Shown in pieces: positions 22,884-62,770 of a stretch of DNA of 64,000 nucleotides (the first letter of the stretch is position 1; every line of letters begins with the position of its first letter). The notes beneath the pieces are model-generated. The model had not been told where the DNA came from. It did no database searches and worked only from the letters and a program-made list of their open reading frames with translations. The position numbers were made by a program, and so were the translations under genes. This DNA is from Sacculina carcini. Lineage: Eukaryota > Arthropoda > Thecostraca > Sacculinidae. The stretch covers positions 9,637,354 to 9,701,353 of the forward strand of contig OU696577.1 of NCBI GenBank assembly GCA_916048095.2, given 5' to 3'.

Positions 22884-25800
22884 TGTGTGACAGGGTTGTC
22901 TGCGCTTGCATCCATATCTACTGGTTGAACAGTTAGGTGAGCCGCTGTCATCACGACCAGTCACATCACATGATGCCAGTGTTGGTGGTGGTGGACGGCG
23001 CGTGTGTCAGTTATGTTGCTCCAGTTCTTCTGCTATCGAGTGCCGGTTGAAAGTGACTCGACGTCGCTACGACCCGGCCACCTTGAAAATGCACGTCTCG
23101 CCCCCTCATCCCTCCTCATCCTCATCCACCGCCCCCCACCACTTGATCTACCGCACCTGCTGTACTTGCGCCAATATCGCCGACCTTTTCAACAAGGTAT
23201 GTTTGTGTGTCAGTATGTCAGTGTATGTCAATGTGTCAGTGTGTCAGTGTGTATCAGTGTGTGTGTGTGTGTGTGTATCAGTGTATGTCAATGTGTCAGT
23301 TTGTGTGTGTGTGTGTGTGTCAGTGTATCAGTGTGTGTGTGTGTGTGTGTATCAGTGTGTGTGTGTGTCAATGTGTCAGTGTGTATCAGTGTGTGTGTGT
23401 GTGTGTTTTTTGTATGATTTTGTTGTTTGTGTAAATGTGAGTGTGTGTATAAACGTATATTTAATATAATGTATTGTTATGTGTATGATTATGTTTGTTT
23501 GTGTGTTAGGTGGTACACTTGCAGTATCACTTGTTTGTTTGTTTGTTAGGTGGTACACTTGCAGTACCACTTGTTTGTTTGTTTGTTAGGTGGTACACTT
23601 GCAGTATCACTTGTTTGTTTGTTTGTTTGTTAGGTGGTACACTTGCAGTACCACTTGTTTGTTTGTTTGTTTGTTAGGTGGTACACTTGCAGTATCACTT
23701 GTTTGTTTGTTTGTTAGGTGGTACACTTGCAGTACCACTTGTTTGTTTGTTTGTTAGGTGGTACACTTGCAGTACCACTTGTTTGTTTGTTTGTTAGGTG
23801 GTACACTTGCAGTACCACTTGTTTGTTTGTTTGTTAGGTGGTACACTTGTAGTACCACTTGTTTGTTTGTTTGTTTGTTAGGTGGTACACTTGCAGTACC
23901 ACTTGTTTGTTTGTTTGTTAGGTGGTACACTTGCAGTATCACTTGTTTGTTTGTTTGTTAGGTGGTACACTTGCAGTACCACTTGTTTGTTTGTTTGTTA
24001 GGTGGTACACTTGCAGTATCACTTGTTTGTTTGTTTGTTTGTTAGGTGGTACACTTGCAGTACCACTTGTTTGTTTGTTTGTTAGGTGGTACACTTGTAG
24101 TATCACTTGTTTGTTTGTTTGTTTGTTAGGTGGTACACTTGCAGTACCACTTGTTTGTTTGTGTGTTAGGTGGTACACTTGCAGTACCACTTGTTTGTTT
24201 GTTTGTTAGGTGGTACACTTGCAGTATCACTTGTTTGTTTGTTTGTTAGGTGGTACACTTGCAGTACCACTTGTTTGTTTGTTTGTTAGGTGATACACTT
24301 GTAGTATCACTTGTTTGTTTGTTTGTTAGGTGGTACACTTGCAGTACCACTTGTTTGTTTGTTTGTTAGGTGGTACACTTGCAGTATCACTTGTTTGTTT
24401 GTTTGTTAGGTGGTACACTTGCAGTACCACTTGTTTGTTTGTTTGTTAGGTGGTACACTTGCAGTACCACTTGTTTGTTTGTTTGTTTGTTAGGTGGTAC
24501 ACTTGCAGTACCACTTGTTTGTTTGTTTGTTAGGTGGTACACTTGCAATATCACTTGTTTGTTTGTTTGTTAGGTGGTACACTTGCAGTACCACTTGTTT
24601 GTTTGTTTGTTTGTTAGGTGGTACACTTGCAGTACCACTTGTTTGTTTGTTTGTTAGGTGGTACACTTGCAATATCACTTGTTTGTTTGTTTGTTAGGTG
24701 GTACACTTGCAGTATCACTTGTTTGTTTGTTTGTTAGGTGGTACACTTGCAGTATCACTTGTTTGTTTGTTTGTTAGGTGGTACACTTGCAGTATCACTT
24801 GTTTGTTTGTTTGTTTGTTAGGTGGTACACTTGCAGTACCACTTGTTTGTTTGTTTGTTAGGTGGTACACTTGCAGTACCACTTGTTTGTTTGTTTGTTT
24901 GTTAGGTGGTACACTTGCAGTATCACTTGTTTGTTTGTTTGTTAGGTGGTACACTTGCAATACCACTTGTTTGTTTGTTTGTTTGTTAGGTGGTACACTT
25001 GCAATACCACTTGTTTGTTTGTTTGTTTGTTAGGTGGTACACTTGCAGTACCACTTGTTTGTTTGTTTGTTAGGTGGTACACTTGTAGTACCACTTGTTT
25101 GTTTGTTTGTTAGGTGGTACACTTGCAGTACCACTTGTTTGTTTGTTTGTTAGGTGGTACACTTGCAGTATCACTTGTTTGTTTGTTTGTTAGGTGGTAC
25201 ACTTGCAGTATCACTTGTTTGTTTGTTTGTTTGTTAGGTGGTACACTTGCAGTATCACTTGTTTGTTTGTTTGTTAGGTGGTACACTTGCAGTACCACTT
25301 GTTTGTTTGTTTGTTAGGTGGTACACTTGCAGTACCACTTGTTTGTTTGTTTGTTTGTTAGGTGGTACACTTGCAGTACCACTTGTTTGTTTGTTTGTTT
25401 GTTAGGTGGTACACTTGCAGTACCACTTGTTTGTTTGTTTGTTAGGTGGTACACTTGCAGTATCACTTGTTTGTTTGTTTGTTAGGTGGTACACTTGCAG
25501 TATCACTTGTTTGTTTGTTTGTTAGGTGGTACACTTGCAGTATCACTTGTTTGTTTGTTTGTTAGGTGGTACACTTGCAGTATCACTTGTTTGTTTGTTT
25601 GTTAGGTGGTACACTTGCAGTACCACTTGTTTGTTTGTTTGTTAGGTGGTACACTTGCAGTATCACTTGTTTGTTTGTTTGTTAGGTGGTACACTTGCAG
25701 TACCACTTGTTTGTTTGTTTGTTAGGTGGTACACTTGCAGTATCACTTGTTTGTTTGTTTGTTAGGTGGTACACTTGCAGTATCACTTGTTTGTTTGTTT

Positions 25801-28800
25801 GTTAGGTGGTACACTTGCAGTATCACTTGTTTGTTTGTTTGTTTGTTAGGTGGTACACTTGCAGTATCACTTGTTTGTTTGTTTGTTAGGTGGTACACTT
25901 GCAGTACCACTTGTTTGTTTGTTTGTTTGTTAGGTGGTACACTTGCAGTATCACTTGTTTGTTTGTTTGTTAGGTGGTACACTTGCAGTACCACTTGTTT
26001 GTTTGTTTGTTTGTTAGGTGGTACACTTGCAGTACCACTTGTTTGTTTGTTTGTTAGGTGGTACACTTGCAGTACCACTTGTTTGTTTGTTTGTTTGTTA
26101 GGTGGTACACTTGCAGTACCACTTGTTTGTTTGTTTGTTTGTTAGGTGGTACACTTGCAATATCACTTGTTTGTTTGTTTGTTTGTTAGGTGGTACACTT
26201 GCAGTACCACTTGTTTGTTTGTTTGTTAGGTGGTACACTTGCAGTATCACTTGTTTGTTTGTTTGTTAGGTGGTACACTTGCAGTACCACTTGTTTGTTT
26301 GTTTGTTTGTTAGGTGGTACACTTGCAGTATCACTTGTTTGTTTGTTTGTTAGGTGGTACACTTGCAGTACCACTTGTTTGTTTGTTTGTTAGATGGTAC
26401 ACTTGCAGTATCACTTGTTTGTTTGTTTGTTAGGTGGTACACTTGCAGTACCACTTGTTTGTTTGTTTGTTAGGTGGTACACTTGCAGTATCACTTGTTT
26501 GTTTGTTTGTTTGTTAGGTGGTACACTTGCAGTATCACTTGTTTGTTTGTTTGTTAGGTGGTACACTTGCAGTATCACTTGTTTGTTTGTTTGTTAGGTG
26601 GTACACTTGCAGTACCACTTGTTTGTTTGTTTGTTTGTTAGGTGGTACACTTGCAGTATCACTTGTTTGTTTGTTTGTTAGGTGGTACACTTGCAGTACC
26701 ACTTGTTTGTTTGTTTGTTTATTAGGTGGTACACTTGCAGTACCACTTGTTTGTTTGTTTGTTTGTTAGGTGGTACACTTGCAGTATCACTTGTTTGTTT
26801 GTTTGTTTGTTAGGTGGTACACTTGCAGTACCACTTGTTTGTTTGTTTGTTTGTTAGGTGGTACACTTGCAGTATCACTTGTTTGTTTGTTTGTTAGGTG
26901 GTACACTTGCAGTACCACTTGTTTGTTTGTTTGTTAGGTGGTACACTTGCAGTACCACTTGTTTGTTTGTTTGTTTGTTAGGTGGTACACTTGCAGTATC
27001 ACTTGTTTGTTTGTTTGTTAGGTGGTACACTTGCAGTATCACTTGTTTGTTTGTTTGTTAGGTGGTACACTTGCAATATCACTTGTTTGTTTGTTTGTTA
27101 GGTGGTACACTTGCAGTACCACTTGTTTGTTTGTTTGTTTGTTAGGTGGTACACTTGCAGTACCACTTGTTTGTTTGTTTGTTAGGTGGTACACTTGCAG
27201 TACCACTTGTTTGTTTGTTTGTTAGGTGGTACACTTGCAGTACCACTTGTTTGTTTGTTTGTTTGTTAGGTGGTACACTTGCAGTATCACTTGTTTGTTT
27301 GTTTGTTAGGTGGTACACTTGCAGTATCACTTGTTTGTTTGTTTGTTTGTTAGGTGGTACACTTGCAGTATCACTTGTTTGTTTGTTTGTTAGGTGGTAC
27401 ACTTGCAGTACCACTTGTTTGTTTGTTTGTTTGTTAGGTGGTACACTTGCAGTATCACTTGTTTGTTTGTTTGTTAGGTGGTACACTTGCAGTACCACTT
27501 GTTTGTTTGTTTGTTAGGTGGTACACTTGCAGTATCACTTGTTTGTTTGTTTGTTTGTTAGGTGGTACACTTGCAGTATCACTTGTTTGTTTGTTTGTTA
27601 GGTGGTACACTTGCAGTACCACTTGTTTGTTTGTTTGTTAGGTGGTACACTTGCAGTACCACTTGTTTGTTTGTTTGTTTGTTAGGTGGTACACTTGCAA
27701 TATCACTTGTTTGTTTGTTTGTTAGGTGGTACACTTGCAGTATCACTTGTTTGTTTGTTTGTTAGGTGGTACACTTGCAGTACCACTTGTTTGTTTGTTT
27801 GTTAGGTGGTACACTTGCAGTATCACTTGTTTGTTTGTTTGTTTGTTAGGTGGTACACTTGCAGTATCACTTGTTTGTTTGTTTGTTTGTTAGGTGGTAC
27901 ACTTGCAGTATCACTTGTTTGTTTGTTTGTTAGGTGGTACACTTGCAGTACCACTTGTTTGTTTGTTTGTTTGTTAGGTGGTACACTTGCAGTACCACTT
28001 GTTTGTTTGTTTGTTTGTTAGGTGGTACACTTGCAGTACCACTTGTTTGTTTGTTTGTTAGGTGGTACACTTGCAGTACCACTTGTTTGTTTGTTTGTTA
28101 GGTGGTACACTTGCAGTATCACTTGTTTGTTTGTTTGTTAGGTGGTACACTTGCAGTACCACTTGTTTGTTTGTTTGTTAGGTGGTACACTTGCAGTATC
28201 ACTTGTTTGTTTGTTTGTTAGGTGGTACACTTGCAGTACCACTTGTTTGTTTGTTTGTTTGTTAGGTGGTACACTTGCAGTATCACTTGTTTGTTTGTTT
28301 GTTAGGTGGTACACTTGCAGTATCACTTGTTTGTTTGTTTGTTAGGTGGTACACTTGCAGTACCACTTGTTTGTTTGTTTGTTAGGTGGTACACTTGCAG
28401 TATCACTTGTTTGTTTGTTTGTTTGTTAGGTGGTACACTTGCAGTATCACTTGTTTGTTTGTTTGTTAGGTGGTACACTTGCAGTATCACTTGTTTGTTT
28501 GTTTGTTAGGTGGTACACTTGCAGTACCACTTGTTTGTTTGTTTGTTAGGTGGTACACTTGCAGTACCACTTGTTTGTTTGTTTGTTAGGTGGTACACTT
28601 GCAGTATCACTTGTTTGTTTGTTTGTTAGGTGGTACACTTGCAGTATCACTTGTTTGTTTGTTTGTTAGGTGGTACACTTGCAGTACCACTTGTTTGTTT
28701 GTTTGTTAGGTGGTACACTTGCAGTACCACTTGTTTGTTTGTTTGTTTGTTAGGTGGTACACTTGCAGTACCACTTGTTTGTTTGTTTGTTTGTTAGGTG

Positions 28801-31800
28801 GTACACTTGCAGTATCACTTGTTTGTTTGTTTGTTAGGTGGTACACTTGCAGTATCACTTGTTTGTTTGTTTGTTTGTTAGGTGGTACACTTGCAGTATC
28901 ACTTGTTTGTTTGTTTGTTAGGTGGTACACTTGCAGTACCACTTGTTTGTTTGTTTGTTAGGTGGTACACTTGCAGTACCACTTGTTTGTTTGTTTGTTA
29001 GGTGGTACACTTGCAGTATCACTTGTTTGTTTGTTTGTTTGTTAGGTGGTACACTTGCAGTATCACTTGTTTGTTTGTTTGTTTGTTAGGTGGTACACTT
29101 GCAATATCACTTGTTTGTTTGTTTGTTTGTTAGGTGGTACACTTGCAGTATCACTTGTTTGTTTGTTTGTTAGGTGGTACACTTGCAGTATCACTTGTTT
29201 GTTTGTTTGTTAGGTGGTACACTTGCAGTATCACTTGTTTGTTTGTTTGTTAGGTGGTACACTTGCAGTACCACTTGTTTGTTTGTTTGTTAGGTGGTAC
29301 ACTTGCAGTACCACTTGTTTGTTTGTTTGTTAGGTGGTACACTTGCAGTATCACTTGTTTGTTTGTTTGTTAGGTGGTACACTTGCAGTATCACTTGTTT
29401 GTTTGTTTGTTAGGTGGTACACTTGCAGTACCACTTGTTTGTTTGTTTGTTAGGTGGTACACTTGCAGTATCACTTGTTTGTTTGTTTGTTAGGTGGTAC
29501 ACTTGCAGTACCACTTGTTTGTTTGTTTGTTTGTTAGGTGGTACACTTGCAGTATCACTTGTTTGTTTGTTTGTTAGGTGGTACACTTGCAGTACCACTT
29601 GTTTGTTTGTTTGTTTGTTAGGTGGTACACTTGCAGTACCACTTGTTTGTTTGTTTGTTTGTTAGGTGGTACACTTGCAGTATCACTTGTTTGTTTGTTT
29701 GTTTGTTAGGTGGTACACTTGCAGTATCACTTGTTTGTTTGTTAGGTGGTACACTTGCAGTATCACTTGTTTGTTTGTTTGTTAGGTGGTACACTTGCGG
29801 TACCACTTGTTTGTTTGTTTGTTAGGTGGTACACTTGCAGTACCACTTGTTTGTTTGTTTGTTTGTTAGGTGGTACACTTGCAGTATCACTTGTTTGTTT
29901 GTTTGTTAGGTGGTACACTTACAGTATCACTTGTTTGTTTGTTTGTTAGGTGGTACACTTGCAGTATCACTTGTTTGTTTGTTTGTTAGGTGGTACACTT
30001 GCAGTACCACTTGTTTGTTTGTTTGTTTGTTAGGTGGTACACTTGTAGTACCACTTGTTTGTTTGTTTGTTAGGTGGTACACTTGCAGTACCACTTGTTT
30101 GTTTGTTTGTTAGGTGGTACACTTGCAGTATCACTTGTTTGTTTGTTTGTTAGGTGGTACACTTGCAGTACCACTTGTTTGTTTGTTTGTTAGGTGGTAC
30201 ACTTGCAGTACCACTTGTTTGTTTGTTTGTTTGTTAGGTGGTACACTTGCAGTATCACTTGTTTGTTTGTTTGTTTGTTAGGTGGTACACTTGCAGTACC
30301 ACTTGTTTGTTTGTTTGTTAGGTGGTACACTTGCAGTACCACTTGTTTGTTTGTTTGTTAGGTGGTACACTTGCAGTATCACTTGTTTGTTTGTTTGTTA
30401 GGTGGTACACTTGCAGTATCACTTGTTTGTTTGTTTGTTAGGTGGTACACTTGCAGTACCACTTGTTTGTTTGTTTGTTTGTTAGGTGGTACACTTGCAG
30501 TATCACTTGTTTGTTTGTTTGTTAGGTGGTACACTTGCAATACCACTTGTTTGTTTGTTTGTTAGGTGGTACACTTGCAGTACCACTTGTTTGTTTGTTT
30601 GTTAGGTGGTACACTTGCAGTACCACTTGTTTGTTTGTTTGTCTGTTAGGTGGTACACTTGCAGTATCACTTGTTTGTTTGTTTTTTTGTTAGGTGGTAC
30701 ACTTGCAGTACCACTTGTTTGTTTGTTTGTTTGTTAGGTGGTACACTTGCAGTATCACTTGTTTGTTTGTTTGTTAGGTGGTACACTTGCAATATCACTT
30801 GTTTGTTTGTTTGTTAGGTGGTACACTTGCAGTATCACTTGTTTGTTTGTTTGTTAGGTGGTACACTTACAGTATCACTTGTTTGTTTGTTTGTTAGGTG
30901 GTACACTTGCAGTACCACTTGTTTGTTTGTTTGTTAGGTGGTACACTTGCAGTACCACTTGTTTGTTTGTTTGTTTGTTAGGTGGTACACTTGCAGTACC
31001 ACTTGTTTGTTTGTTTGTAAGGTGGTACACTTGCAGTACCACTTGTTTGTTTGTTTGTTAGGTGGTACACTTGCAGTATTACTTGTTTGTTTGTTTGTTT
31101 GTTAGGTGGTACACTTACAGTATCACTTGTTTGTTTGTTTGTTTGTTAGGTGGTACACTTGCAGTACCACTTGTTTGTTTGTTTGTTTGTTAGGTGGTAC
31201 ACTTACAGTATCACTTGTTTGTTTGTTTGTTAGGTGGTACACTTGCAGTATCACTTGTTTGTTTGTTTGTTAGGTGGTACACTTGTAGTATCACTTGTTT
31301 GTTTGTTTGTTAGGTGGTACACTTGCAGTACCACTTGTTTGTTTGTTTGTTAGGTGGTACACTTGCAGTACCACTTGTTTGTTTGTTTGTTAGGTGGTAC
31401 ACTTGTAGTATCACTTGTTTGTTTGTTTGTTTGTTAGGTGGTACACTTGTAGTATCACTTGTTTGTTTGTTTGTTTGTTAGGTGGTACACTTGCAGTACC
31501 ACTTGTTTGTTTGTTTGTTTGTTAGGTGGTACACTTGCAGTATCACTTGTTTGTTTGTTTGTTAGGTGGTACACTTGCAGTACCACTTGTTTGTTTGTTT
31601 GTTAGGTGGTACACTTGCAGTATCACTTGTTTGTTTGTTTGTTAGGTGGTACACTTGCAGTACCACTTGTTTGTTTGTTTGTTTGTTAGGTGGTACACTT
31701 GCAGTACCACTTGTTTGTTTGTTTGTTTGTTAGGTGGTACACTTGCAGTATCACTTGTTTGTTTGTTTGTTTGTTAGGTGGTACACTTGCAGTATCACTT

Positions 31801-32763
31801 GTTTGTTTGTTTGTTAGGTGGTACACTTGCAGTACCACTTGTTTGTTTGTTTGTTAGGTGGTACACTTGCAGTACCACTTGTTTGTTTGTTTGTTAGGTG
31901 GTACACTTGCAGTACCACTTGTTTGTTTGTTTGTTAGGTGGTACACTTGCAGTACCACTTGTTTGTTTGTTTGTTAGGTGGTACACTTGCAGTACCACTT
32001 GTTTGTTTGTTTGTTTGTTAGGTGGTACACTTGCAGTACCACTTGTTTGTTTGTTTGTTTGTTAGGTGGTACACTTGCAGTATCACTTGTTTGTTTGTTT
32101 GTTAGGTGGTACACTTGCAGTACCACTTGTTTGTTTGTTTGTTAGGTGGTACACTTGCAGTACCACTTGTTTGTTTGTTTGTTAGGTGGTACACTTGCAG
32201 TACCACTTGTTTGTTTGTTTGTTAGGTGGTACACTTGCAGTACCACTTGTTTGTTTGTTTGTTTGTTAGGTGGTACACTTGCAGTATCACTTGTTTGTTT
32301 GTTTGTTAGGTGGTACACTTGCAGTACCACTTGTTTGTTTGTTAGGTGGTACACTTGCAGTATCACTTGTTTGTTTGTTTGTTAGGTGGTACACTTGCAG
32401 TACCACTTGTTTGTTTGTTTGTTTGTTAGGTGGTACACTTGCAGTACCACTTGTTTGTTTGTTTGTTAGGTGGTACACTTGCAGTACCACTTGTTTGTTT
32501 GTTTGTTAGGTGGTACACTTGCAGTATCACTTGTTTGTTTGTTTGTTTGTTAGGTGGTACACTTGCAGTACCACTTGTTTGTGGAATGTCGGCGCGAGGT
32601 TGACAATGTTTCTCAACGTATTTCCACCTCTGCTAATGGTAATAACAATACTCGAGTGTTGGGTGACGGCGATGATGATATACAAGTGTTATGCTCGGGC
32701 AATATGCCCCCTGTCACGCATCTGCTCAAAACAGTCATGTCTAACTCGGCCTGGATACAACAG
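19290..32763 (+). CDS. QSER1/PRR12-like protein with DUF4211-type C-terminal domain (6 exons, 3' end unresolved)
   Basis: Exons: 19290–20045, 20888–21031, 21616–21958, 22231–22328, 22894–23196 and 32554–32763; phases 0,0,1,0,0 agree. They give 618 residues before the donor at 32764. Residues 1–252 are Ser/Ala/Thr-rich. 253–300 ([10 protein letters not shown]...VIWRVDRHN) resembles the chromatin-reader-like segment preceding DUF4211 in QSER1 and PRR12. Poly-Gln is at 343–350. About 385–618 is DUF4211-like: [39 protein letters not shown]2C (RVCQLCC), [16 protein letters not shown], then [16 protein letters not shown] across the last junction. The function of the invertebrate proteins is unknown; vertebrate QSER1 is nuclear and linked to DNA-methylation control. 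Exon 2 could also begin at 20822. No exon after 32763 could be identified. The family call comes from remembered motif order, not a search. Confidence 0.65.
20060..20820 (+). repeat. CA-rich intron 1 of the QSER1-like gene with a TTATATAGCGC element
   Basis: (CA)n tracts are separated by short unique pieces. At 20440–20485 an ATTACATTACATTA run is followed by TTTATATAGCGCTTTTCACC and AAAGCGCTC, a short inverted GCGCTTT motif. Similar TATATAGCGC pieces occur at 61658–61668 and 62077–62116, so this is a dispersed repeat fragment. Confidence 0.55.
21110..21374. mobile_element. GGATCCGCC-family MITE, copy 1 (intron 2 of the QSER1-like gene)
   Basis: Shares the cores ATTTGTTGATATAAGCATTA and CAACTCCTCA with four other copies in the window (37.7, 41.7, 43.6 and 50.0 kb) and ends CTCTGGATCCGCC at 21353–21365. 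It contains no coding sequence. Classed as a non-autonomous DNA element because complete copies carry inverted ends. Confidence 0.6.
22811..22890 (+). repeat. (GT)n tract forming the acceptor region of exon 5, QSER1-like gene
   Basis: About 80 bp of nearly pure GT run to GTGACAG, directly before the exon start at 22894. It stands where a polypyrimidine tract would normally be. Confidence 0.85.
23494..32582 (+). repeat. 9.1-kb satellite of a duplicated splice acceptor and exon start (about 220 units)
   Basis: Each unit is (TTTG)3–4 with GTTAG, then GTGGTACACTTGCAGTAY and CACTTG. Basic length is 40 bp, with many 44-bp units (one extra TTTG) and rare 36-bp ones (near 29735 and 32335). The last unit is the true acceptor: TTAG at 32550–32553 followed by GTGGTACACTTGCAGTACCA, reading [10 protein letters not shown] into unique exon 6. 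Every upstream unit therefore copies the end of the intron plus the first 24–28 exon bases. The main internal variant is TAC/TAT; minor ones alter CAG to TAG-, CAA- or ACA-type triplets. The first acceptor-like copy is at 23506–23509. Before it, 23200–23420 is GT-rich with GTCAGTGT motifs. The 60–140-residue open frames on both strands are unit translations. Confidence 0.97.
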
Positions 32764-34240
32764 GTTAGCATACAAACACACACAAACACACACACAAGAA
32801 CGTTAAGAAATACACACACATCGACTTCTATTGGTGCTTTAACAAGTGAATATTTCAATTATCCTGGAAGATGTCAACATTCGCTGTCAGTCATGAAAAA
32901 TATGTACAATTAGCACGTGATGTTAAAAACGAGGGTCCTTCAATTTATCACAAATTGTCAGAGTTTGAAAAAACGTTTTTTCTATGGTTTTTTTTTAGAA
33001 AAAAAAACAAAAAACGTTGGGTTTTTTGGTTTATTTGGGTTTTTTTCACACTTTGCACACACAAATCAAAAAAGAATAATACCATGCTATTTAGTACATA
33101 GTTAAACATGTTAGTACCACTTACCAAGAGTTTTGTAAATATTTGAAAATGATGAAAATAAAATCAAGTGTTTTTCATAGAAACTCAAATGTTTTGTCGT
33201 AAAGATATAGGATTTCTCATAAATACCAACTACAATGCTTTCCCAGCAGAAACCAAAAATGTTCATAAATATTACTTTTTGACATGATTTTAAGGGTTTG
33301 CACGATATGGGAAACAATTTTATTAAAACTTATTTACTAAACTTAAAATAATTTTACATTTATTATGTTTTTGAAAAAAAACACTGTTAATTTTGCAATC
33401 GAAACTATAAAAGAAATTTGGTAGACGCCGATAGAAGCTCAAACAGGACACTTTTTGCTCTTAAACGAGCAGAGAATGTAATTAAATGTGTGTGTGTGTG
33501 TGTGTGTGTGTTGGATAGTGTTTTAACGCTCGTCGAATATTGTGGGCCGATATAGACGAAATGGCAGCCAAGGGTGGACAAACGGCGGTCACTGTCTGAT
33601 ACAAGCCACAATTGTCTCAATTCCACTGTCTGATACACGCCACAATTGTCTCAATTCCACAACGTCTGACACACGCCATACTCTTGTCCATATCATTATT
33701 TGAATGTTAAACTATTAAACTTGTTGTCGATGAGAGTTTTTGCGTTGATATTTTAATACGGGCAAGTTGTACTTATGAAAATGTTCTTCGCGTGCCATAT
33801 ATACTAATACACTCTCATGTACTGTGTGTGTCATGTATTGTGGCGGTATCCACGAAGATTGTGAAAATTTAAAAAAAACGTATTCATTGGAGCAATGTTA
33901 CAAGAATTTACTCGAATTTCAACATGTTCTTATACTTGGGTTTGAAATCGAGTTTTTTGCCTCTCAAAAGCTGGTTGTCATAGAAACACCGCAGCGCGCG
34001 TGACAAACAACTTGACGCACGCCCGAAATTCCACTCTTTTAGTCTATTTTTACGCGAGTTCGCTAGGCTTGGCTTGTTTTTGGGTGCTGCAAGGATTAGT
34101 GCGAAGAACGACGAAAGCACATAATCTGTTAAATTTTTACAACTGGTCAGTGCAAAGACGAAGCAGGCATGAAAAGCGACAACGCCAACAACACGCTGAA
34201 TACCAACGACTGAAGGCGCTCCTTTGTTCGCACCACTCCA
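32764..34240. other. Spacer or intron after exon 6; no exon confirmed
   Basis: AT-rich with poly-A/T runs (32990–33050), a (GT)n tract at 33487–33511 and a 2–3-copy direct repeat of about 38 bp (CACTGTCTGATACA...) at 33590–33680. If the QSER1-like gene continues, its next exon may be here, but no open frame resembles the expected C-terminus. Reading through the donor at 32764 gives a stop at 32911–32913. Confidence 0.4.
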
Positions 34241-34249
34241 TCACACAGC

Positions 34250-34610
34250 ACCCTGTGCGCATGCGCACAACAGGCTTTGTGGAGCGCAGTCATGTAGGCG
34301 ATGAGACGGTCCCGCTCCCCCACCACCCAGTCTACAATCCCCAGCTGGGGAGAAAGCTAGCGAGCTCGCCATTGGTCGAAGCTAAGTTCATGTGTGACGT
34401 CATAGACACACAACGCCATCTAGTCGACGTTTTGTCAACTATCTGCGTCGGTAGAAAGTTCATTCGTTGAGAGGTGCCAGTTGGTTGTGGGTGCGTTCGC
34501 TGCTTTGTCTGGGTTTCCTTTGTTCTTTGGCTGTGCGTGCGCTACGTTGGATTCTGCACCTTCTATGTGTCGAGCCTAGCCGTTGTTTTGAATTCTGCAT
34601 CAATCTGCTG
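34250..34610 (+). promoter_or_regulatory. BTG promoter region with NRF1-like, CCAAT and CRE sites
   Basis: In the 360 bp before the BTG start codon: the palindrome TGCGCATGCGCA (NRF1-like) at 34256–34267, an inverted CCAAT box (ATTGG) at 34371–34375, and a full cAMP-response element TGACGTCA at 34395–34402. The sequence is GC-richer than its surroundings and no TATA box is seen. A CRE fits the immediate-early, CREB-responsive behaviour known for vertebrate BTG2. The sites are seen; their use is inferred. Confidence 0.6.
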
Positions 34611-34615
34611 CTGTC

Positions 34616-35155
34616 ATGAAGTGCGAGGTGTATTCTGCTGCTGATTTCATCGCCAACCTACTGCGAGTGGGACATGCGTCATCGCTGAACGAACTCCAGT
34701 TGATGGCGTTCCGAGATACGCTCATCGTGATGATGCGAAACCACTACCAGAACCACTGGTTCCCCGACCGACCGTTCAAGGGTTCAGGCTATCGTTGTAT
34801 TCGTATTAACGGGCAGATGGACCCATTGGTAGCGTCGGCGGGCGAGGCTTGTGGTATGCCTCCTGCTCATCTGCGGGCACTCTTTCCCAGCGAGCTTACC
34901 ATGTGGGTCGACCCGTGGGAGGTGTCCTACCGCATCGGCGAGAACGGTTCCATCTGCGTTCTGCTCGATAGCAAAACTGTGATGGCGGCGGCGGCTGCTG
35001 CGAGTGCTTCGGTGCCGGAATCAGAAGTGTCGATTTCTGCTTCGGCGAGGTCTTACAGCGGCAGTTCTTGTAAGACAGTTCCGTCGCCGGCGGTCGGTCA
35101 GAGGCAGTGGTCGGAGGCAAACGGAGCAGCAACATCGGCCTGTGTTTTCAGCTAA
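34616..35155 (+). CDS. BTG1/2: BTG1/BTG2-type antiproliferative protein (intronless)
   Basis: 179 residues from MKCEVYSAADFIANLLRVG to CVFS. The BTG domain occupies residues 1–117. Box A is NHYQNHWFPDRPFKGSGYRC (42–61) followed by IRIN. Box B is LFPSELTMWVDPWEVSYRIG (89–108), then ENGSICVL. RCIRINGQMDPL and YRIGENGSICVL match BTG1/BTG2 better than TOB or BTG3. Residues 123 onward form an Ala/Ser-rich tail without a PAM2-like motif. These proteins bind the CAF1 (CNOT7/8) deadenylase of CCR4–NOT, promote mRNA deadenylation and restrain cell-cycle entry. Vertebrate BTG1/2 genes have an intron inside this domain; here the domain is uninterrupted. Start choice is secure because it matches the family N-terminus. 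Confidence 0.93.
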   Translation: MKCEVYSAADFIANLLRVGHASSLNELQLMAFRDTLIVMMRNHYQNHWFPDRPFKGSGYRCIRINGQMDPLVASAGEACGMPPAHLRALFPSELTMWVDPWEVSYRIGENGSICVLLDSKTVMAAAAAASASVPESEVSISASARSYSGSSCKTVPSPAVGQRQWSEANGAATSACVFS

Positions 35156-50026: not shown

Positions 50027-50312
50027 CGTATTCAGAGCGCAATTTTGGAGAGGGTTGAATTATGTATGAGTTACTAGGTAGCGAGTGAAGGTCATGACTT
50101 ATGGGACATTCTTCAATTATATACACACACATTTATACACATAATAATGTGCGAATATGCTTTGCGATAATGCTTATATCAACAAATTCTACAGAAATAT
50201 ATTTTTTCTTGACCTCTTTTAGTGAAGTTCTTGGTTTTGAGGAGTTGATGGAATCCTATTGGAAGGGTAGCTTAAGCCCCTTGAACCCCCATGTGGATCT
50301 GCCAGAGTACCA
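50027..50312. mobile_element. GGATCCGCC-family MITE, copy 5 (inverted, near full length)
   Basis: Starts CAGTGGCGTATTCAGAGC at 50023 and ends GTGGATCTGCCAG near 50306. It contains the core reversed (GATAATGCTTATATCAACAA, GAGGAGTTGATGG) and shares AGGTAGCGAGTGAAGGTCAT with copy 1 (there reversed). About 285 bp, apparently the longest member. Confidence 0.7.
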
Positions 50313-50794
50313 CATAGAATGAGTTGATACAGTGAGAGGTAGTTCATCATCACTATTACACCACATAGATCGGGCGCATTCACTCTATTACAGTGGCCAT
50401 TTGCAGTTGGCTTTTGAAGTGTTTATTGGTGTTTGTCAGGCATGATCTAGCGATATGTAGCCATGGATGTAGATTCTGGGGGATGTGGGGATATATACAT
50501 AACCCTGACAAATTGACTGATAATTCTGCTGAGCTCACTTAATTGATTATATTGTCATTAAAATATGATTATAAAAAGTAACAATACACGACAAGCATGT
50601 ATGTATGCAAATATCTTGAATATACTTTTCATTGAGGTTTGTGGGTTGTAATTGACTAGGCATAAAATAGTTTCCAATGCATTCAGCTGGTTAGTTGAAT
50701 AAAAATTATCAATTTCTTTTTCAGTTTTCCTCGGTTTTTCGTCATTCTCGCATGCTTGCTGTCATCCTCATCTCATTCGCGTCTTCCAATAATT

Positions 50795-51275
50795 TCGGTG
50801 TGTTTATGTGTATGAATGTGTATGTGTGTAGGTATGAATGTGTTTGTGTAGATATGAATGTGTTTGTGTATGAATGTGTGTGTGTGTTTGTGTGCTTATG
50901 TGTATGTGTGTTTATGTGTAGTAAAGTGTATGTGTGTAGATATGAATGTGTGTGTATGAATGTGTATGTGTGTGTATGAATGTGTATGTATGTATATATG
51001 AATGTGTATGTATGTATATATGAATGTGTATGTGTGTAGATATAAATGTGTATGTGTGTAGATATAAATGTGTATGTGTGTAGATATAAATGTGTATGTG
51101 TAGATATGAATGTATGTGTGTATGTGCATGTGTGTGTATTGTATGTGTATGTGTTTGTGTGTGTAGACATAAATGAGTGAGTGTGTATGTGTGTAGATAT
51201 GAATGTGTTTGTGTGTGTGTGTGTAGATATGAATGTGTTTGTGTGTGTAGACATAAATGAGTGTGTACAGTGTAC
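50795..51275 (+). repeat. GTGTGTAGATATGAATGTGT minisatellite
   Basis: Irregular units of about 18–24 bp, TGTGTGTAGATATRAATGTGTA with variants, ending in an ACAGTGTACAGTGTGTGG piece. Frames on both strands are artefacts. The next 150 bp (51290–51440) are GC-rich with an open plus-strand frame (LEVVLERLVTTTPPLLSRRL) that could be an exon, but no family is recognised. Confidence 0.7.
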
Positions 51276-51289
51276 AGTGTGTGGATTAG

Positions 51290-52530
51290 AGGTTGTGTTG
51301 GAACGCCTCGTGACGACAACGCCGCCGCTGCTTTCTCGCCGTCTCCCGCATAATCCTGCCGCGTGCATTTCTCATGGGCGTGCAGCGTGATGAGGCTGGC
51401 CATCGCTGGCTGCATTCACCACTGCCACGACGCTCACGCTGATCAACCAGCGCCGAAAATAACACGCCGGCGTCCGCTGCTTTTTGCCGGGGCGGCGGCG
51501 TCGTCCCTGTGACACGCTTTCATTTGTCGCGAGCAAGAGAGAGGCCAGAGGGAGGGCAGGAAAGAGTTTGGGAGTCGTGACGTCATGTCAGCTGTTCTTT
51601 GTTTGGATTGTGAGTGCGCGCGCGGCGTCCTCCCCCATCATCCCTTACCCATCCCCCACGCCCCTCTTCTCGTTTGCCCTGCTATAACAGCCAAACTTGA
51701 TGCGCTGCCGAACTAGAGTGTTTTTTTTATCAGACTAGAAGACTGTTATACCTGTATCTATACTGGCGTTGATCTTGTGCAGGAATAATTATTTTGTGAT
51801 TTAAAACAAGAAATCATCATGCAATTTGTGGATAAGTTTTTTTACAACTGGATAAGTATTTACTCAAATAGTGGAAGCTCAAACATCAGGCTACCACTGA
51901 TTACAAACAAACAAACCATGTATTTGGTATAGCGCACTAATTTGCAAAGGCGCGAAAACGTACAAAGTAGAGCAAAATGAGGTGTAAAAAGTGATAGGGG
52001 CTCAAAAAGAACAAAATTATATGAGCTGAAGTGAAAAGGCACAAAAAATATCAAGAGCAGGAAATATATACAACAATCAAGAAGATCAAGAAAATATATA
52101 CAGCGCATTACCACTTGTACCACTAATACCATTCACAATACCACTTATTACCACGTATACTATTAACTTTACCACTCATTACCACTCTTTTTACCACCTA
52201 TTACCACTCGTTGCTCAAAATTAGCCGTTTTTGCAGCCACAGTTTGGCTAATTTTGCGATCTGGCATCCCGTTGTCACCGGATGCTGCCAAACACCGGGG
52301 CAGGTGTTCCCCTGGCTCATAAAGCGAGCTGCGCGCGCGTCTCGTGTGTGAATAACATCATGGGGCCGCGTCCTCGGCGTCCCCGCGTCCCAGGGACTCC
52401 AGCCGTGTATCCGCCCCATTGAAATAGCAGTAGCGTGCGCATTCACGCACGAATTCAGGCGCGCAGGCGGTCGGCACAGACAGGGCAGGCCAGGTGAAAA
52501 ACGACCCGCTTCACAAACAGCCACATGTCA
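51290..52530. other. Two GC-rich, CpG-containing islands of unknown role
   Basis: 51290–51680 and 52240–52510 are GC- and CpG-rich compared with the flanking AT-rich DNA and could be promoter or exon material. They hold open frames on both strands without recognisable domains. Between them, 52090–52210 repeats TTACCAC motifs (ACCACTTGTACCACTAATACC...). Confidence 0.3.
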
Positions 52531-52729
52531 TCCGAGATGTGAAAGCAAAAATGGGCAGTAAATAATTGTGCGCTGCTGATTACGGGCGTGCATTATAGAA
52601 TATGATATGAATACTGATACAGCGGCCAGATTAGCACTGATTTTACTGTTCTCACTGTTCTGTTCTGTTCTCACTATTCTCACTGTTATATTTGGCAACC
52701 AACAATCCTTATTTCAAATGTTACACGAT

Positions 52730-52820
52730 TTAAGATGTAATATGATGCTCTATGATGATGCTAATATGATGCTGATGTAATATAATGCTGATGTAATATG
52801 ATGCTGATGTAATATGAATA
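52730..52820 (+). repeat. 18-bp ATGATGCTGATGTAATAT tandem repeat
   Basis: About four copies of an 18-bp unit, GATGCTGATGTAATATAA with variants. The surrounding 52530–53580 is unique and AT-rich; no gene is seen before CHCHD3. Confidence 0.75.
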
Positions 52821-53581
52821 CTAATTTGTTAGTATTTAACTAATCTTATTAGTTGTCTAGCCTAACCGCCGTAATTCAATTTCTAGCTATATGCTGGTTC
52901 GTTTTGAGATGAGAAAAAGTAATTGTACTCAACAATAATATTTGTTTTATCAAGAAAATAGACATTATACCAAGACAATTATACATTATACAAATGCTCC
53001 AAATATTTTGCTTCAAGGTACACTATCGGATAACCCCTCAAAAGCAAGCAAAATTGTTTTAATATTGTTGATATGTAAACTATAAAAAAATTTGGTGAAG
53101 TATATATATTCCATTTAGTAAGTTATTTCACGGTTGCTACTTGAGGCATAATCAAGTAACCTGCGTTGATTACTGCGCACTGTCTCATGAGTTTTCGCTG
53201 TTGTGTCTTGAGAGAGGTTTGTGTGAAAAATACGTGCAATTTCATTTTTGGTGGGTTCGGCGAACACATATTGATTCAAGTAGCGTACGTATAAGAACGT
53301 ATGTGATTTATTCCTTAAGTCTTAGCCATGTTTACAGCGAGGAATATACTCGCAGAAACTGAGCTGCGGCTGACACAGCAAAAACTGGCGTAAAATTGCT
53401 AGTGTTTTTTGTTAAATTATTAATACACAGGCAAAATCACATTTCTTAAGCTGTTGGCTGACTATTTTAACTACTGACAATTCGGTGACGTTCTTTAAAA
53501 CCGTTCTCTCCGCGCTCACCAAATACCAATTCCGTGTCGTTCTACTCTCCGTTTTTTGTGTGTCTAGTGGAACGGGGCGTC

Positions 53582-56500
53582 ATGGGCGGTTCTGTTAGCT
53601 CGTCCCGCATGACGGTCGATAATGAAAACGTTGAAAATGTAATTACGGTGAGTGCAAATCTCTCTGTTCTTCTCTAATTCTTTTTTCTTGAAACTTTGTT
53701 CCATTTATTTTGTTTTATTATCGCTCTACTTCTAATTAATGTCCCCTGCATGCTCGCCGTATGATATGCAGGTGGAATTCATACGCATACATTATCCTCT
53801 TTGTGTGAGTGTGTGCTTATATATACTTTGTCTCTATGCCACATTGTGCAGATATCCGAGTCTGTGGTGGAGCTAATTCGCGACGACCTGAAAAACGCGC
53901 AGTCGCCGCCCGCCGGTGACCTTTCAGCTGGCACCTCTCAAGCATCACCATTGCCTCCACCCGCCGCCGCCACGCCGGCAGATGGCGCCACAAGTGTTGA
54001 TTCAGCGTCATCATCGGCGGGCGCAAGTGATGATGGCGCGGCGTCGTGGGCGTTCTCGCCCGAGGCGGTGATGACAGTGGTGCGAATGCGGCAGGAGCGC
54101 GAGACGGCCCTGCAACAGCTGGACGCTGAGTGGCGCCAACGACTGGCCGCAGTCGAGCAGCAGCAGCGCCATCTACCGGCACTGGCCGACAAGGCGTTCT
54201 GTGAGGCGGCGCACGACACGCGCCAACTGTTCACCAGCACCGCCTCCGTCAATAACCAGTGTGTGCACTGTCAGGTGTGTGTCAGTGTGTTATTCAGGTG
54301 TGTGTCAGTGTGTCATTCAGGTGTGTGTCAGTGTGTTATTCAGGTGTGTCAGTGTGTTATTCAGGTGTGTCATTGTGTCATTCAGGTGTGTCAGTGTGTT
54401 ATTCAGGTGTGTGTCAGTGTGTTATTCAGGTGTGTCATTGTGTCATTCAGGTGTGTCAGTGTGTTATTCAGGTGTATCAGTGTGTCATTCAGGTGTGTCA
54501 GTGTGTTATTCAGGTGTGTGTCAGTGTGTCATTCAGGTGTGTCAGTGTGTCATTCAGGTGTGTCAGTGTGTTATTCAGGTGTGTCAGTGTGTTATTCAGG
54601 TGTGTGTCAGTGTGTCATTCAGGTGTGTGTCAGTGTGTTATTCAGGTGTGTGTCAGTGTGTCATTCAGGTGTGTCAGTGTGTTATTCAGGTGTGTGTCAG
54701 TGTGTCATTCAGGTGTGTCAGTGTGTTATTCAGGTGTGTGTCAGTGTGTTATTCAGGTGTGTGTCAGTGTGTTATTCAGGTGTGTGTCAGTGTGTCATTC
54801 AGGTGTGTCAGTGTGTCATTCAGGTGTGTGTCAGTGTGTTATTCAGGTGTGTGTCAGTGTGTTATTCAGGTGTGTGTCAGTGTGTTATTCAGGTGTGTGT
54901 CAGTGTGACATTCAGGTGTGTCAGTGTGTCATTCAGGTGTATCAGTGTGTTATTCAGGTGTGTCAGTGTGACATTCAGGTGTGTGTCAGTGTGTCATTCA
55001 GGTGTGTCAGTGTGTCATTCAGGTGTATGTGTCAGTGTGTCAGTCTGTGTTATTCAGGTGTATCAGTGTGTCATTCAGGTGTGTCAGTGTGTCATTCAGG
55101 TGTGTCAGTGTGTTATTCAGGTGTGTGTCAGTGTGTCATTTAGGTGTGTGTCATTTAGGTGTGTGTCAGTGTGTTATTCAGGTGTGTGTCAGTGTGTTAT
55201 TCAGGTGTGTCAGTGTGTTATTCAGGTGTGTGTCAGTGTGTCATTCAGGTGTGTCATTCAGGTGTGTGTCAGTGTGTCATTTAGGTGTGTGTCAGTGTGT
55301 TATTCAGGTGTGTGTCAGTGTGTTATTCAGGTGTGTGTCAGTGTGTCATTCAGGTGTGTGTCAGTGTGTCATTCAGGTGTGTGTCAGTGTGTCATTCAGG
55401 TGTGTCAGTGTGTCATTCAGGTGTATGTGTCAGTGTGTCATTCAGGTGTGTGTCAGTCTGTGTTATTCAGGTGTATCAGTGTGTCATTCAGGTGTGTCAG
55501 TGTGTCATTCAGGTGTGTCAGTGTGTTATTCAGGTGTGTCAGTGTGTCATTCAGGTGTGTGTCAGTGTGTTATTCAGGTGTGTATCAGTGTGTTATTCAG
55601 GTGTGTGTCAGTGTGTTATTCAGGTGTGTCAGTGTCATTCAGGTGTGTGTCAGTGTGTTATTCAGGTGTGTGTCAGTGTGACATTCAGGTGTGTCAGTGT
55701 GTCATTCAGGTGTATGTCAGTGTGTCATTCAGGTGTGTGTCAGTGTGTTATTCAGGTGTGTATCAGTGTGTCATTCAGGTGTGTGTCAGTCTGTGTTATT
55801 CAGGTGTATCAGTGTGTCATTCAGGTGTGTCAGTGTGTCATTCAGGTGTGTCAGTGTGTTATTCAGGTGTGTCAGTGTGTCATTCAGGTGTGTGTCAGTG
55901 TGTTATTCAGGTGTGTCAGTGTGTCATTCAGGTGTGTCAGTGTGTCATTCAGGTGTGTCAGTGTGTCATTCAGGTGTGTCAGTGTGTCATTCAGGTGTGT
56001 CAGTGTGTCATTCAGGTGTGTCAGTGTGTCATTCAGATGTGTGTCAGTGTGTCATTCAGGTGTGTGTCAGTGTGTTATTCAGGTGTGTCAGTGTGTTATT
56101 CAGGTGTGTGTCAGTGTGTTATTCAGGTGTGTGTCAGTGTGTCATTCAGGTGTGTCAGTGTGTTATTCAGGTGTGTCAGTGTGTTATTCAGGTGTGTGTC
56201 AATGTGTCATTCAGGTGTGTGTCAGTGTGTCATTCAGGTGTGTGTCAGTGTGTTATTCAGGTGTGTGTCAGTGTGTTATTCAGGTGTGTCAGTGTGTTAT
56301 TCAGGTGTGTCAGTGTGTCATTCAGGTGTGTGTCAATGTGTTATTCAGGTGTGTCAGTGTGTCATTCAGGTGTGTGTCAGTGTGTTATTCAGGTGTGTCA
56401 GTGTGTCATTCAGGTGTGTCAGTGTGTTATTCAGGTGTGTGTCAGTGTGTCATTCAGGTGTATCAGTGTGTCATACAGGTGTGTCAGTGTGTCATTCAGG

Positions 56501-59500
56501 TGTGTGTCAGTGTGTTATTCAGGTGTGTGTCAGTGTGTCATTCAGGTGTATCAGTGTGTCATTCAGGTGTGTGTCAGTGTGTTATTCAGGTGTGTGTCAG
56601 TGTGTCATTCAGGTGTGTGTCAGTGTGTCATTCAGGTGTATCAGTGTGTCATACAGGTGTGTCAGTGTGTCATTCAGGTGTGTGTCAGTGTGTTATTCAG
56701 GTGTGTGTCAGTGTGTCATTCAGGTGTGTCAGTGTGTCATTCAGGTGTGTGTCAGTGTGTTATTCAGGTGTGTTATTCAGGTGTGTCAGTGTGTCATTCA
56801 GGTGTGTGTGTCAGTGTGTCATTCAGGTGTGTCAGTGTGTTATTCAGGTGTGTTATTCAGGTGTGTCAGTGTGTCATTCAGGTGTGTCAGTGTGTTATTC
56901 AGGTGTGTCAGTGTGTTATTCAGGTGTGTCAGTGTGTCATTCAGGTGTGTCAGTGTGTCATTCAGGTGTGTGTCAGTGTGTTATTCAGGTGTGTGTCAGT
57001 GTGTTATTCAGGTGTGTGTCAGTGTGTCATTCAGGTGTGTCAGTGTGTCATTCAGGTGTGTGTCAGTGTGTTATTCAGGTGTGTCAGTGTGTCATTCAGG
57101 TGTGTCAGTGTGTCATTCAGGTGTGTGTCAGTGTGTTATTCAGGTGTATCAGTGTGTTATTCAGGTGTGTCAGTGTGTCATACAGGTGTGTCAGTGTGTT
57201 ATTCAGGTGTGTGTCAGTGTGTCATTCAGGTGTGTGTCAGTGTGTTATTCAGGTGTGTGTCAGTGTGTTATTCAGGTGTGTCAGTGTGTTATTCAGGTGT
57301 GTGTCAGTGTGTCATTCAGGTGTGTGTCAGTGTGTTATTCAGGTGTATCAGTGTGTTATTCAGGTGTGTGTCAGTGTGTCATTCAGGTGTGTGTCAGTGT
57401 GTCATTCAGGTGTGTGTGTCAGTGTGTTATTCAGGTGTGTCAGTGTGTTATTCAGGTGTGTGTCAGTGTGTTATTCAGGTGTGTCAGTGTGTCATTCAGG
57501 TGTGTCATTCAGGTGTGTGTCAGTGTGACATTCAGGTGTGTCAGTGTGTTATTCAGGTGTGTGTCAGTGTGACATTCAGGTGTGTGTCAGTGTGTTATTC
57601 AGGTGTGTCAGTGTGTTATTCAGGTGTGTCAGTGTGTCATTCAGGTGTGTGTCAGTGTGTTATTCAGGTGTGTCAGTGTGTCATTCAGGTGTATCAGTGT
57701 GTTATTCAGGTGTGTCAGTGTGTCATTCAGGTGTGTCAGTGTGTCATTCAGGTGTGTGTCAGTGTGTTATTCAGGTGTATCAGTGTGTTATTCAGGTGTG
57801 TCAGTGTGTCATACAGGTGTGTCAGTGTGTTATTCAGGTGTGTCAGTGTGTTATTCAGGTGTGTGTCAGTGTGTTATTCAGGTGTGTGTCAGTGTGTTAT
57901 TCAGGTGTGTGTCAGTGTGTCATTCAGGTGTGTCAGTGTGTCATTCAGGTGTGTCAGTGTGTTATTCAGGTGTATCAGTGTGTTATTCAGGTGTGTCAGT
58001 GTGTCATTCAGGTGTGTGTCAGTGTGTCATTCAGGTGTGTGTGTCAGTGTGTTATTCAGGTGTGTGTCAGTGTGTTATTCAGGTGTGTGTCAGTGTGTCA
58101 TTCAGGTGTGTCAGTGTGTTATTCAGGTGTGTGTCAGTGTGTTATTCAGGTGTGTGTCAGTGTGTTATTCAGGTGTGTCAGTGTGTTATTCAGGTGTGTC
58201 AGTGTGTCATTCAGGTGTGTGTCAGTGTGTCATTCAGGTGTGTGTGTCAGTGTGTTATTCAGGTGTGTGTCAGTGTGTCATTCAGGTGTGTCAGTGTGTT
58301 ATTCAGGTGTGTGTCAGTGTGTTATTCAGGTGTGTGTCAGTGTGTTATTCAGGTGTGTGTGTCAGTGTGTTATTCAGGTGTGTGTGTCAGTGTGTTATTC
58401 AGGTGTGTCAGTGTGTTATTCAGGTGTGTCAGTGTGTCATTCAGGTGTGTGTCAGTGTGTCATTCAGGTGTGTGTGTCAGTGTGTCATTCAGGTGTGTCA
58501 GTGTGTCATTCAGGTGTGTGTGTCAGTGTGTTATTCAGGTGTGTGTCAGTGTGTTATTCAGGTGTGTGTCAGTGTGTCATTCAGGTGTGTGTGTCAGTGT
58601 GTCATTCAGGTGTGTCAGTGTGTTATTCAGGTGTGTGTCAGTGTGTTATTCAGGTGTGTCAGTGTGTTATTCAGGTGTGTGTCAGTGTGACATTCAGGTG
58701 TGTCAGTGTGTCATTCAGGTGTGTCAGTGTGTCATTCAGGTGTGTGTCAATGTGTTATTCAGGTGTGTGTCAGTGTGTTATTCAGGTGTGTGTGTCAGTG
58801 TGTCATTCAGGTGTGTGTCAGTGTGTCATTCAGGTGTGTGTCAGTGTGTTATTCAGGTGTGTGTGTCAATGTGTTATTCAGGTGTGTGTCAGTGTGTTAT
58901 TCAGGTGTGTCAGTGTGTCATTCAGGTGTGTGTCAGTGTGTTATTCAGGTGTGTGTCAGTGTGTTATTCAGGTGTGTGTCAATGTAAGTGTATCATTGTG
59001 CCAATGTATCAGTGTGTCAATGTATCACACTGATACAGGTATGTGTGTGTGTGTCATTTAGGTGTGTCAGTGTGTCATTTAGGTGTGTCAGTGTGTCATT
59101 TAGGTGTGTCAGTGTGTCATTTAGGTGTGTCAGTGTGTCATTCAGGTGTGTATCAGTGTGTCATTCAGGTGTGTCAGTGTGTCATTCAGGTGTGTGTCAG
59201 TGTGTCATTCAGGTGTGTCAGTGTGTCATTCAGGTGTGTCAGTGTGTTATTCAGGTGTGTGTCAGTGTGTTATTCAGGTGTGTGTCAGTCTGTCATTCAG
59301 GTGTGTCAGTGTGTTATTCAGGTGTGTCAGTGTGTCATTCAGGTGTGTCAGTGTGTCATTCAGGTGTGTATCAGTGTGTCATTCAGGTGTGTCAGTGTGT
59401 TATTCAGGTGTGTGTCAGTCTGTGTTATTCAGGTGTGTCAGTGTGTCATTCAGGTGTGTGTCAGTGTGTTATTCAGGTGTGTCAGTGTGTCATTCAGGTG

Positions 59501-60034
59501 TGTGTCAGTGTGTCATTCAGGTGTGTGTCAGTGTGACATTCAGGTGTGTCAGTGTGTCATTCAGGTGTGTCAGTGTGTTATTCAGGTGTGTGTCAATGTA
59601 AGTGTATCATTGTGTCAATTTGTCACACTGATACAGGTATGTGTGTGTGTGTCAGTGTGTAATTGTGACAATGCGTCAGTGATTACTCTGATTAATCTCA
59701 GGTGTTTTTCTGTGGCTGCCAGGAGAGCGTAACCTCGTGCTACTTGAAGAACTCTGGTCGTCCCCTGCTCTGCGATCAAGAAGTTCAAAAATTCGCCGAC
59801 TGTGTCAAACAGGCACGAACGGTGAGCAGAACTTTGCTCAAGAATTACTAGAAAAAACAGCGCATTTATCATATAGATTCTCTCTGAATCGTTATCATAT
59901 ATGTGTGCGTATATGTGCCATTATACATATTGCACTTACGGATATTATATTCCAACTTAGCGGGACGGTAGCGTATCAGCACCAACTGTACGTGTTTGTA
60001 TGTCTGTGTGTTTCAGAGTCTGTTGGCGAGCTAG
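53582..60034 (+). CDS. CHCHD3: MICOS subunit CHCHD3/MIC19 (4 exons)
   Basis: Exons 53582–53647, 53852–54274, 59723–59821 and 60017–60034 (TAG), all phase 0, encode 201 residues (human has 227). The N-terminus MGGSVSSSRMT keeps the N-myristoylation signal (Gly2). ENVENVITISESVVELIRDD matches the family start. Residues 38–92 are Pro/Ala/Ser-rich, and 93–150 form a charged helix (MRQERETALQQLDAEWRQRL). The CHCH domain has the twin CX9C: C159–C169 and C180–C190, spaced as in human CHCHD3. The first pair forms only if exon 3 starts at 59723 (GCTGCCAG|GAGAGC), which fixes that acceptor. The last exon adds SLLAS, matching the short human tail. The protein sits on the inner mitochondrial membrane facing the intermembrane space and supports cristae junctions. 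An extra cysteine (C162) lies between the first pair. Confidence 0.93.
54275..59655 (+). repeat. 5.4-kb satellite of donor-like CAG|GTGTGT units in CHCHD3 intron 2
   Basis: Starts at the first base of the intron. Units are (GT)3–5, CAGTGTG, then TTATTCAG, TCATTCAG or ACATTCAG: 21, 23 or 25 bp, over 200 copies. Each unit begins with GT and ends with CAG, so each joint reads CAG|GTGTGT like the genuine exon 2 donor (CTGTCAG|GTGTGTGTCAG). At 58981–59050 and again at 59595–59650 the array is interrupted by the same piece (AATGTAAGTGTATCATTGTG ... CACTGATACAGGTATGTG), 614 bp apart, showing block duplication. A few units read TCATTTAG (around 55140, 55270 and 59055–59120). No stop occurs in long stretches of all three frames, so the 500–999-codon frames here are not genes. 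Confidence 0.96.
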
Positions 60035-60055
60035 TGGGCGTTCGCTTTCAACCAA

Positions 60056-60093
<38 letters not shown>

Positions 60094-60338
60094 GGAATAT
60101 TGCTGTAATCACGCCAACGCAAAATGGTGCTGCATAATGGATTTGGCAAATTGCCTGTACATTTGGCGAACGCTAGCGTGTCTGTCTGTCTGTGTGTGTG
60201 TGTGAACATATGACAAGACAATTGAGTGTGTAGAAAGAAAGTCAAGCCAACGCAAGCGGTTTTCAGTTATTATCACAACTTGCCCTCGATACAAACACAA
60301 AACACACACACTAACACTAACACTAGATATGGATGCAG

Positions 60339-62770: not shown

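What the first reader, a model, noticed from the sequence alone, without database searches (positions are those of the whole stretch)
23494..61441. Three independent genes in 64 kb carry splice-junction-seeded tandem arrays
One acceptor array and two donor arrays, with unrelated unit sequences and lengths (40/44, 35/37, 21/23/25), each anchored at the junction it copies. Chance placement of three intronic satellites exactly at exon borders is unlikely, so this genome may have a process that amplifies exon–intron borders, for example slippage on junction-flanking microsatellites or R-loop-linked replication errors. This may be an undescribed genome-wide phenomenon.
Basis: inference. Interest (0 to 1): 0.93.

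Follow-up and report, generated by a model that had tools for sequence, protein, structure and literature searches.

The report
Tandem repeats copying exon–intron borders
Three introns in this animal genome are swollen by tandem repeats that begin at an exon edge, and at least one clearly copies the edge itself; this resembles the "mirages" already described in lancelet genes, here in an animal that is probably not a lancelet.

Summary
A3 (MRPL42 gene, minus strand) is a clear donor-border array: 12 copies plus the real border, each carrying the coding end of the exon and the start of the intron. A1 is an acceptor-border array of 220 sites with AG at all 220 and near-constant exon-side sequence, but its gene has no Pfam or database match and undistinguished codon usage. 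A2 (MIC19/CHCHD3-like gene) starts at the donor, but its likeness to the exon end is marginal (5 of 115 control 21-mers do as well). Tandem duplication of exon–intron borders is not undescribed: it is called "mirages" in lancelet genes. What may be new is the host and the size (9.1 and 5.3 kb). A genome-wide process is not shown: 14 anchored exons elsewhere had no border-copying array, and I saw none in 13 of 46 arrays read in 280 kb of random blocks. Within the window, ends of large arrays meet exon edges more often than under rotation (P 0.011 within 20 nt), but that figure is post hoc.

The parts
22891..23196 (+). putative upstream exon of gene 1, ending AAG|GTATGT
   Evidence: open frame; start of the exon is a guess; no homologue
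23197..32553 (+). putative intron of gene 1, 9357 nt, 97% of it array A1
   Evidence: splice signals and lengths
23492..32582 (+). A1: acceptor-border array, 220 sites TTAG|GTGGTACACTTG, spacing 40/44/36
32554..32769 (+). putative downstream exon of gene 1; its first 29 nt are the last array unit
   Evidence: open frame in phase with the upstream one; codon score ordinary
53852..54274 (+). MIC19/CHCHD3-like exon ending CACTGTCAG|GTGTGT
   Evidence: PF07956
54257..59599 (+). A2: array starting at the donor, unit 21/23/25 nt with AG|GT
54275..59722 (+). MIC19-like intron, 5448 nt, 98% of it array A2
   Evidence: acceptor CCAG|GAGAGC scores 25.9 bits against 20.9 for TCTCAG|GTGTTT
59723..59821 (+). 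next MIC19-like exon
61440..61625 (-). MRPL42 exon ending KHSWYPN at CCCCAA|GTTAGT
   Evidence: PF10210; border
60993..61451 (-). A3: donor-border array, 13 sites, spacing 35/37; units carry coding end plus GTNAGT
60394..61439 (-). MRPL42 intron, 1046 nt, 43% of it array A3
60339..60393 (-). last MRPL42 exon
   Evidence: joined match to PF10210

Best explanation
Border minisatellites of the kind called mirages in lancelets. A short tandem duplication, about 35-44 nt, straddled a splice site; unequal exchange or slippage then multiplied it inside the intron, where length is free to grow. The cell keeps splicing at the copy next to the true exon (first donor, last acceptor), probably through exon definition, so the protein does not change. 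Shown: the array structure; copying of an old coding end in A3; copying of an open frame's start in A1. Inferred: that the A1 frame is an exon, the duplication mechanism, the splice choice, and that A2 belongs to the same class.
For: A3: PF10210 matches through the spliced border, residues 2-103 of 106, so the exon end is old coding sequence and the array derives from it; GT at 12 of 13 sites; the three copies nearest the exon have spacing 35 and one difference each in 21 nt, the nine further ones spacing 37 and more differences (counted by eye). A1: sites chosen by exon-side sequence alone give AG at 220 of 220 and AG|GT at 219; of the first 24 exon-side positions 20 are constant or have one exception, three vary in 4, 8 and 10 sites, one is split C 115 / T 105. 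Array ends near exon edges: 2 observed, 0.14 expected. Lancelet mirages have both donor and acceptor forms, AG/GT in many units, and normal splicing.
Against: No transcript data. Gene 1 is unidentified and codon usage does not mark its exons (43% and 18% of 1249 open control windows score as high). A2's likeness to the exon end is reached by 5 of 115 controls (2 of 115 when the last 4 nt are left out). Counting exon edges inside or near any tandem repeat shows no excess, in the window or in three other genes. No further border-copying array was seen outside the window.
Confidence: 0.72

Rival explanations
1. Intron-filling repeats: introns here are often G/T-rich repeats from donor to acceptor, so array ends meet exon edges for want of room, and what looks like copying in A2 (perhaps A1) is incidental.
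For: TG repeats lie close to several putative exon edges, for example next to the gene 1 donor and shortly before exons near 3775 and 4760; A1 and A2 fill 97% and 98% of their introns; A2 likeness to the exon is marginal.
Against: A3 units hold conserved coding sequence and A3 fills only 43% of its intron. The general edge-in-repeat count is not raised.
Confidence: 0.2
2. Intron birth: the arrays are the introns' origin, by tandem duplication of an AGGT-bearing exon segment (Rogers model).
For: A1 and A2 units carry AG|GT (219 of 220; 226 of 232). A potato intron arose from a duplication crossing an intron-exon boundary (PMC4974935 abstract).
Against: A3 units have AA|GT, and its intron ends in a separate acceptor about 600 nt beyond the array. 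A1 and A2 introns have unarrayed sequence at the other end. Age of these intron positions was not tested.
Confidence: 0.05
3. Ordinary or element-borne minisatellites that landed beside exons.
For: A 30-nt minisatellite next to a carrier exon in L030 resembles copies in two random blocks with shared flanks.
Against: A3 and A1 units match their own exon. The 40-nt A1 exon border occurs once in the genome within 3 mismatches; the bare units were not searched genome-wide.
Confidence: 0.03

Closest known systems
Mirages of lancelet genes (Adh3, globins BflGb6 and BflGb9, PGBD5, troponin C)
   Same: Tandem units spanning an exon-intron border, at donors or acceptors, many with AG/GT signals; described in passages of PMC3087553 and PMC3902484.
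   Different: Host is probably not a lancelet (MCM7). A1 and A2 have over 200 units; the lancelet globin case has 3 and 6 units in two haplotypes with units of 150-160 bp. Unit numbers for Adh3 were not seen. Splicing and instability are untested here.
Intron gain by tandem duplication (Rogers model; potato RdRp case)
   Same: Duplication across or beside a splice border; AG|GT in A1 and A2.
   Different: Here arrays lie within introns that have other sequence too; no sign was sought that the introns are new.
Minisatellite intron of earthworm metallothionein genes
   Same: A 10-19 kb repetitive region of minisatellites inside an invertebrate intron (PMC12783039 passages).
   Different: The passages do not say that units copy an exon border.

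Membership tests
Mirage (lancelet-type border minisatellite) | Tandem units that include sequence from both sides of an exon-intron border | tested here: met
   A3 met; A1 met only if the open frame is an exon; A2 inconclusive
Mirage (lancelet-type border minisatellite) | Splice signals present in many units | tested here: met
   A1 AG 220 of 220; A2 AG|GT 226 of 232; A3 GT 12 of 13
Mirage (lancelet-type border minisatellite) | Normal splicing is kept | not testable with these tools
   no transcripts held; joined exons match domain models for A2 and A3, which is indirect
Mirage (lancelet-type border minisatellite) | Length instability between haplotypes or cells | not testable with these tools
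   one assembly only
Intron gain by tandem duplication | AGGT in the duplicated segment | tested here: inconclusive
   A1 219 of 220 and A2 226 of 232 have AG|GT; A3 has AA|GT
Intron gain by tandem duplication | Intron absent at that position in relatives | not tested
   no relative's gene structure was examined

The most novel reading that the evidence does not exclude
A1 and A2 are long arrays of AG|GT sites, that is, of zero-length exons. If splicing can run from any AG|GT to any later one, gain or loss of units is silent in the mRNA, and border duplications that carry AG|GT can expand with little cost, perhaps being removed stepwise as in recursive splicing. Border arrays would then be a recurrent, splicing-neutral route of intron growth well beyond lancelets.
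Probability: 0.12. Interest if true: 0.78.

Novelty: new member of a known kind. Interest (0 to 1): 0.42.

Why it matters
Mirages were proposed as a source of new introns, and the border-copying arrays that my paper searches brought up are from lancelets. Finding them in another animal lineage, with over 200 units, would point to a general way for introns to grow, and gives a natural test of how splicing picks one of some two hundred near-identical sites.

Tried and rejected
Organism. MCM7: among the 120 listed of 7994 matches no named one exceeds 71% identity. A tree of 47 sequences (the query and 46 of the 120 hits, chosen by me; no support values printed) groups it with two unnamed sequences on a long branch near arthropods, possibly long-branch attraction. 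COX1 was not found in the assembly. I guessed a chaetognath; one splice-leader motif quoted in PMC2566580 gave 4 hits against 13 for the reversed control, so the guess has no support. The phylum stays open; 'probably not a lancelet' rests on MCM7 alone.

Gene 1 (A1). Pfam scans, a protein search and codon scores gave no support. In one search the scores of frames holding stop codons are unreliable because of how stops were counted; only open frames are used here. A likeness to RNase P/MRP zinc-ribbon subunits was a thought from recall only. MRPL42: a protein search with the joined exons gave nothing (2 candidates), so no relative's transcript could confirm the splice.

Genome-wide test. TRF listed 46 arrays of period 12 or more and score 120 or more in the blocks; I read the flanks of 13 of the 46 by eye (one partly masked) and saw no border copying, but few exon borders are known there. 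One (C3 block 3945-4321) starts 11 nt from what looks like the acceptor of an immunoglobulin-like exon (my own look, no domain search). The other 33 were not read. The statistic showed no excess; that did, in the window only. Some exon edges typed for differ by up to 10 nt from the final coordinates.

Papers. Searches; most results were seen as listings only. Passages seen: PMC3087553, PMC3902484, PMC12783039, PMC12460157, PMC2566580, PMC2481426. PMC4974935: outline and abstract. The 2002 Adh paper is not held and is known here only through PMC3087553. The Rogers model and recursive splicing are otherwise from recall and from listings.

Full report
What is there. The window is part of contig C9 of a 264-Mb animal genome in 43 contigs. 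A1, 23492-32582, has 220 junction-like sites spaced 40 (144), 44 (73) or 36 (2) nt. A2, 54257-59599, has 232 CAG|GTGT sites spaced mostly 21, 23 or 25 nt. A3, 60993-61451, read on the minus strand, has 13 sites spaced 35 or 37 nt.

A3 is the clear case. The minus-strand exons joined across the array match Pfam MRP-S32 (MRPL42) at E 1.2e-19, over residues 2-103 of 106. The exon ends KHSWYPN at CCCCAA|GTTAGT. Units repeat about 21 nt of this coding end and about 15 nt of the intron; GT stands at 12 of the 13 sites, also when sites are picked by exon-side sequence alone. The three copies nearest the exon have spacing 35 and one difference each in 21 nt; the nine further copies have spacing 37 and differ more. 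Because the domain match runs through the border, the exon end is old coding sequence and the array derives from it. A database search with the joined protein found no relative, so no transcript confirms the splice.

A1 looks the same at an acceptor. Picked by exon-side sequence alone, 220 of 220 sites have AG and 219 AG|GT. Of the first 24 exon-side positions, 20 are constant or have one exception, three vary in 4, 8 and 10 sites, and one is split C 115 / T 105. The last unit runs on into an open frame (32554-32769) in phase with an upstream open frame ending AAG|GTATGT. TTGTTTG stands on both sides of the junction, a plausible slippage site. But no homologue or domain was found and codon usage does not set the frames apart (43% and 18% of 1249 open control windows score as high), so that these are exons remains an inference.

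A2 is the weakest. The gene is MIC19/CHCHD3-like: DUF1690 matches at 25.9 bits if the intron ends at CCAG|GAGAGC and at 20.9 bits if it ends at TCTCAG|GTGTTT, both under the curated cut-off of 29.7. The array starts at the donor, but the likeness of the exon end to the unit (score 16) is reached by 5 of 115 coding 21-mers that end in CAG, or 2 of 115 when the last 4 nt are left out. It may be a TG repeat that begins with the donor's own GTGTGT.

More than chance? Ten arrays of 300 nt or more lie in the window. Two of their ends fall within 20 nt of the 11 edges of MIC19 and MRPL42 (rotation mean 0.14, P 0.011). With four gene 1 edges added, two fall within 20 nt (P 0.016) and three within 30 nt (mean 0.29, P 0.005). 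This is post hoc, since the window was chosen for the pattern. In three carrier genes elsewhere (14 exons, 28 edges taken as ends of domain matches) one end falls within 20 nt (mean 0.18, P 0.17), and that array resembles a 30-nt minisatellite of two random blocks with shared flanks. A looser count, exon edges inside or near any tandem repeat, shows no excess in either set. In seven random 40-kb blocks 46 arrays were listed; the 13 whose flanks I read showed no border copying that I could see. A genome-wide process is neither shown nor excluded.

What it is. Tandem duplications of exon-intron borders are known as mirages. In lancelet globin genes one case copies the end of an intron with the start of an exon, another the end of an exon; Adh3 has them too, with somatic length instability, and splicing was reported as undisturbed (PMC3087553 passages). 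PGBD5 and troponin C are further lancelet cases (PMC3902484 passage). A3 fits this, A1 very likely, A2 perhaps. MCM7 of this genome is 67% identical to that of Branchiostoma, which stands 92nd of the 120 listed matches, and in a rough tree it sits away from it, so the host is probably not a lancelet; its phylum stays open. My paper searches on this point (mostly listings) brought up no border-copying array outside lancelets other than duplications discussed as intron gain, such as the potato case (abstract). That is a statement about those searches only.

How it probably works. A short duplication over a border, by slippage or unequal exchange, is harmless if the cell still splices at the copy next to the exon. 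Inside the intron the copies can then multiply: A1 and A2 now make up 97% and 98% of their introns, A3 43%. Exon definition would favour the first donor or the last acceptor, since those bound the true exon; this is inference. A1 and A2 units also carry AG|GT (219 of 220; 226 of 232), so splicing between any two units leaves the same junction, which would make their growth silent in the mRNA. A3 has AA|GT, so that property is not required.

Noticed in passing
window 3391-3739, 4606-4746, 22812-22889, 23205-23402: TG-rich repeats stand close to putative splice sites of plus-strand genes. The sense-strand bias is not absolute: carrier gene L030, on the minus strand, also has GT repeats on the plus strand. 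Not quantified.
   Followed up: partly
L030:3468-4075: A 30-nt minisatellite begins a few nt after a carrier exon's donor and resembles arrays in two random blocks with shared flanks, probably an interspersed element.
   Followed up: partly
G000 contigs C15, C20, C24, C31: Clustered protein-kinase matches in very long open frames, up to 2897 aa, several domains per frame.
   Followed up: no
window 16109-18310 (-): MCM7 as one uninterrupted open frame.
   Followed up: no
window 34592-34870 (+): BTG-family gene downstream of gene 1 (PF07742, E 4.8e-23).
   Followed up: no
window 60551-60873: A 177-nt unit, 1.8 copies at 93% match, in the same MRPL42 intron as A3.
   Followed up: no
random blocks on C1 (1.0 Mb) and C4 (3.0 Mb): Recurring 342-460-nt tandem units shared between blocks on different contigs.
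   Followed up: no
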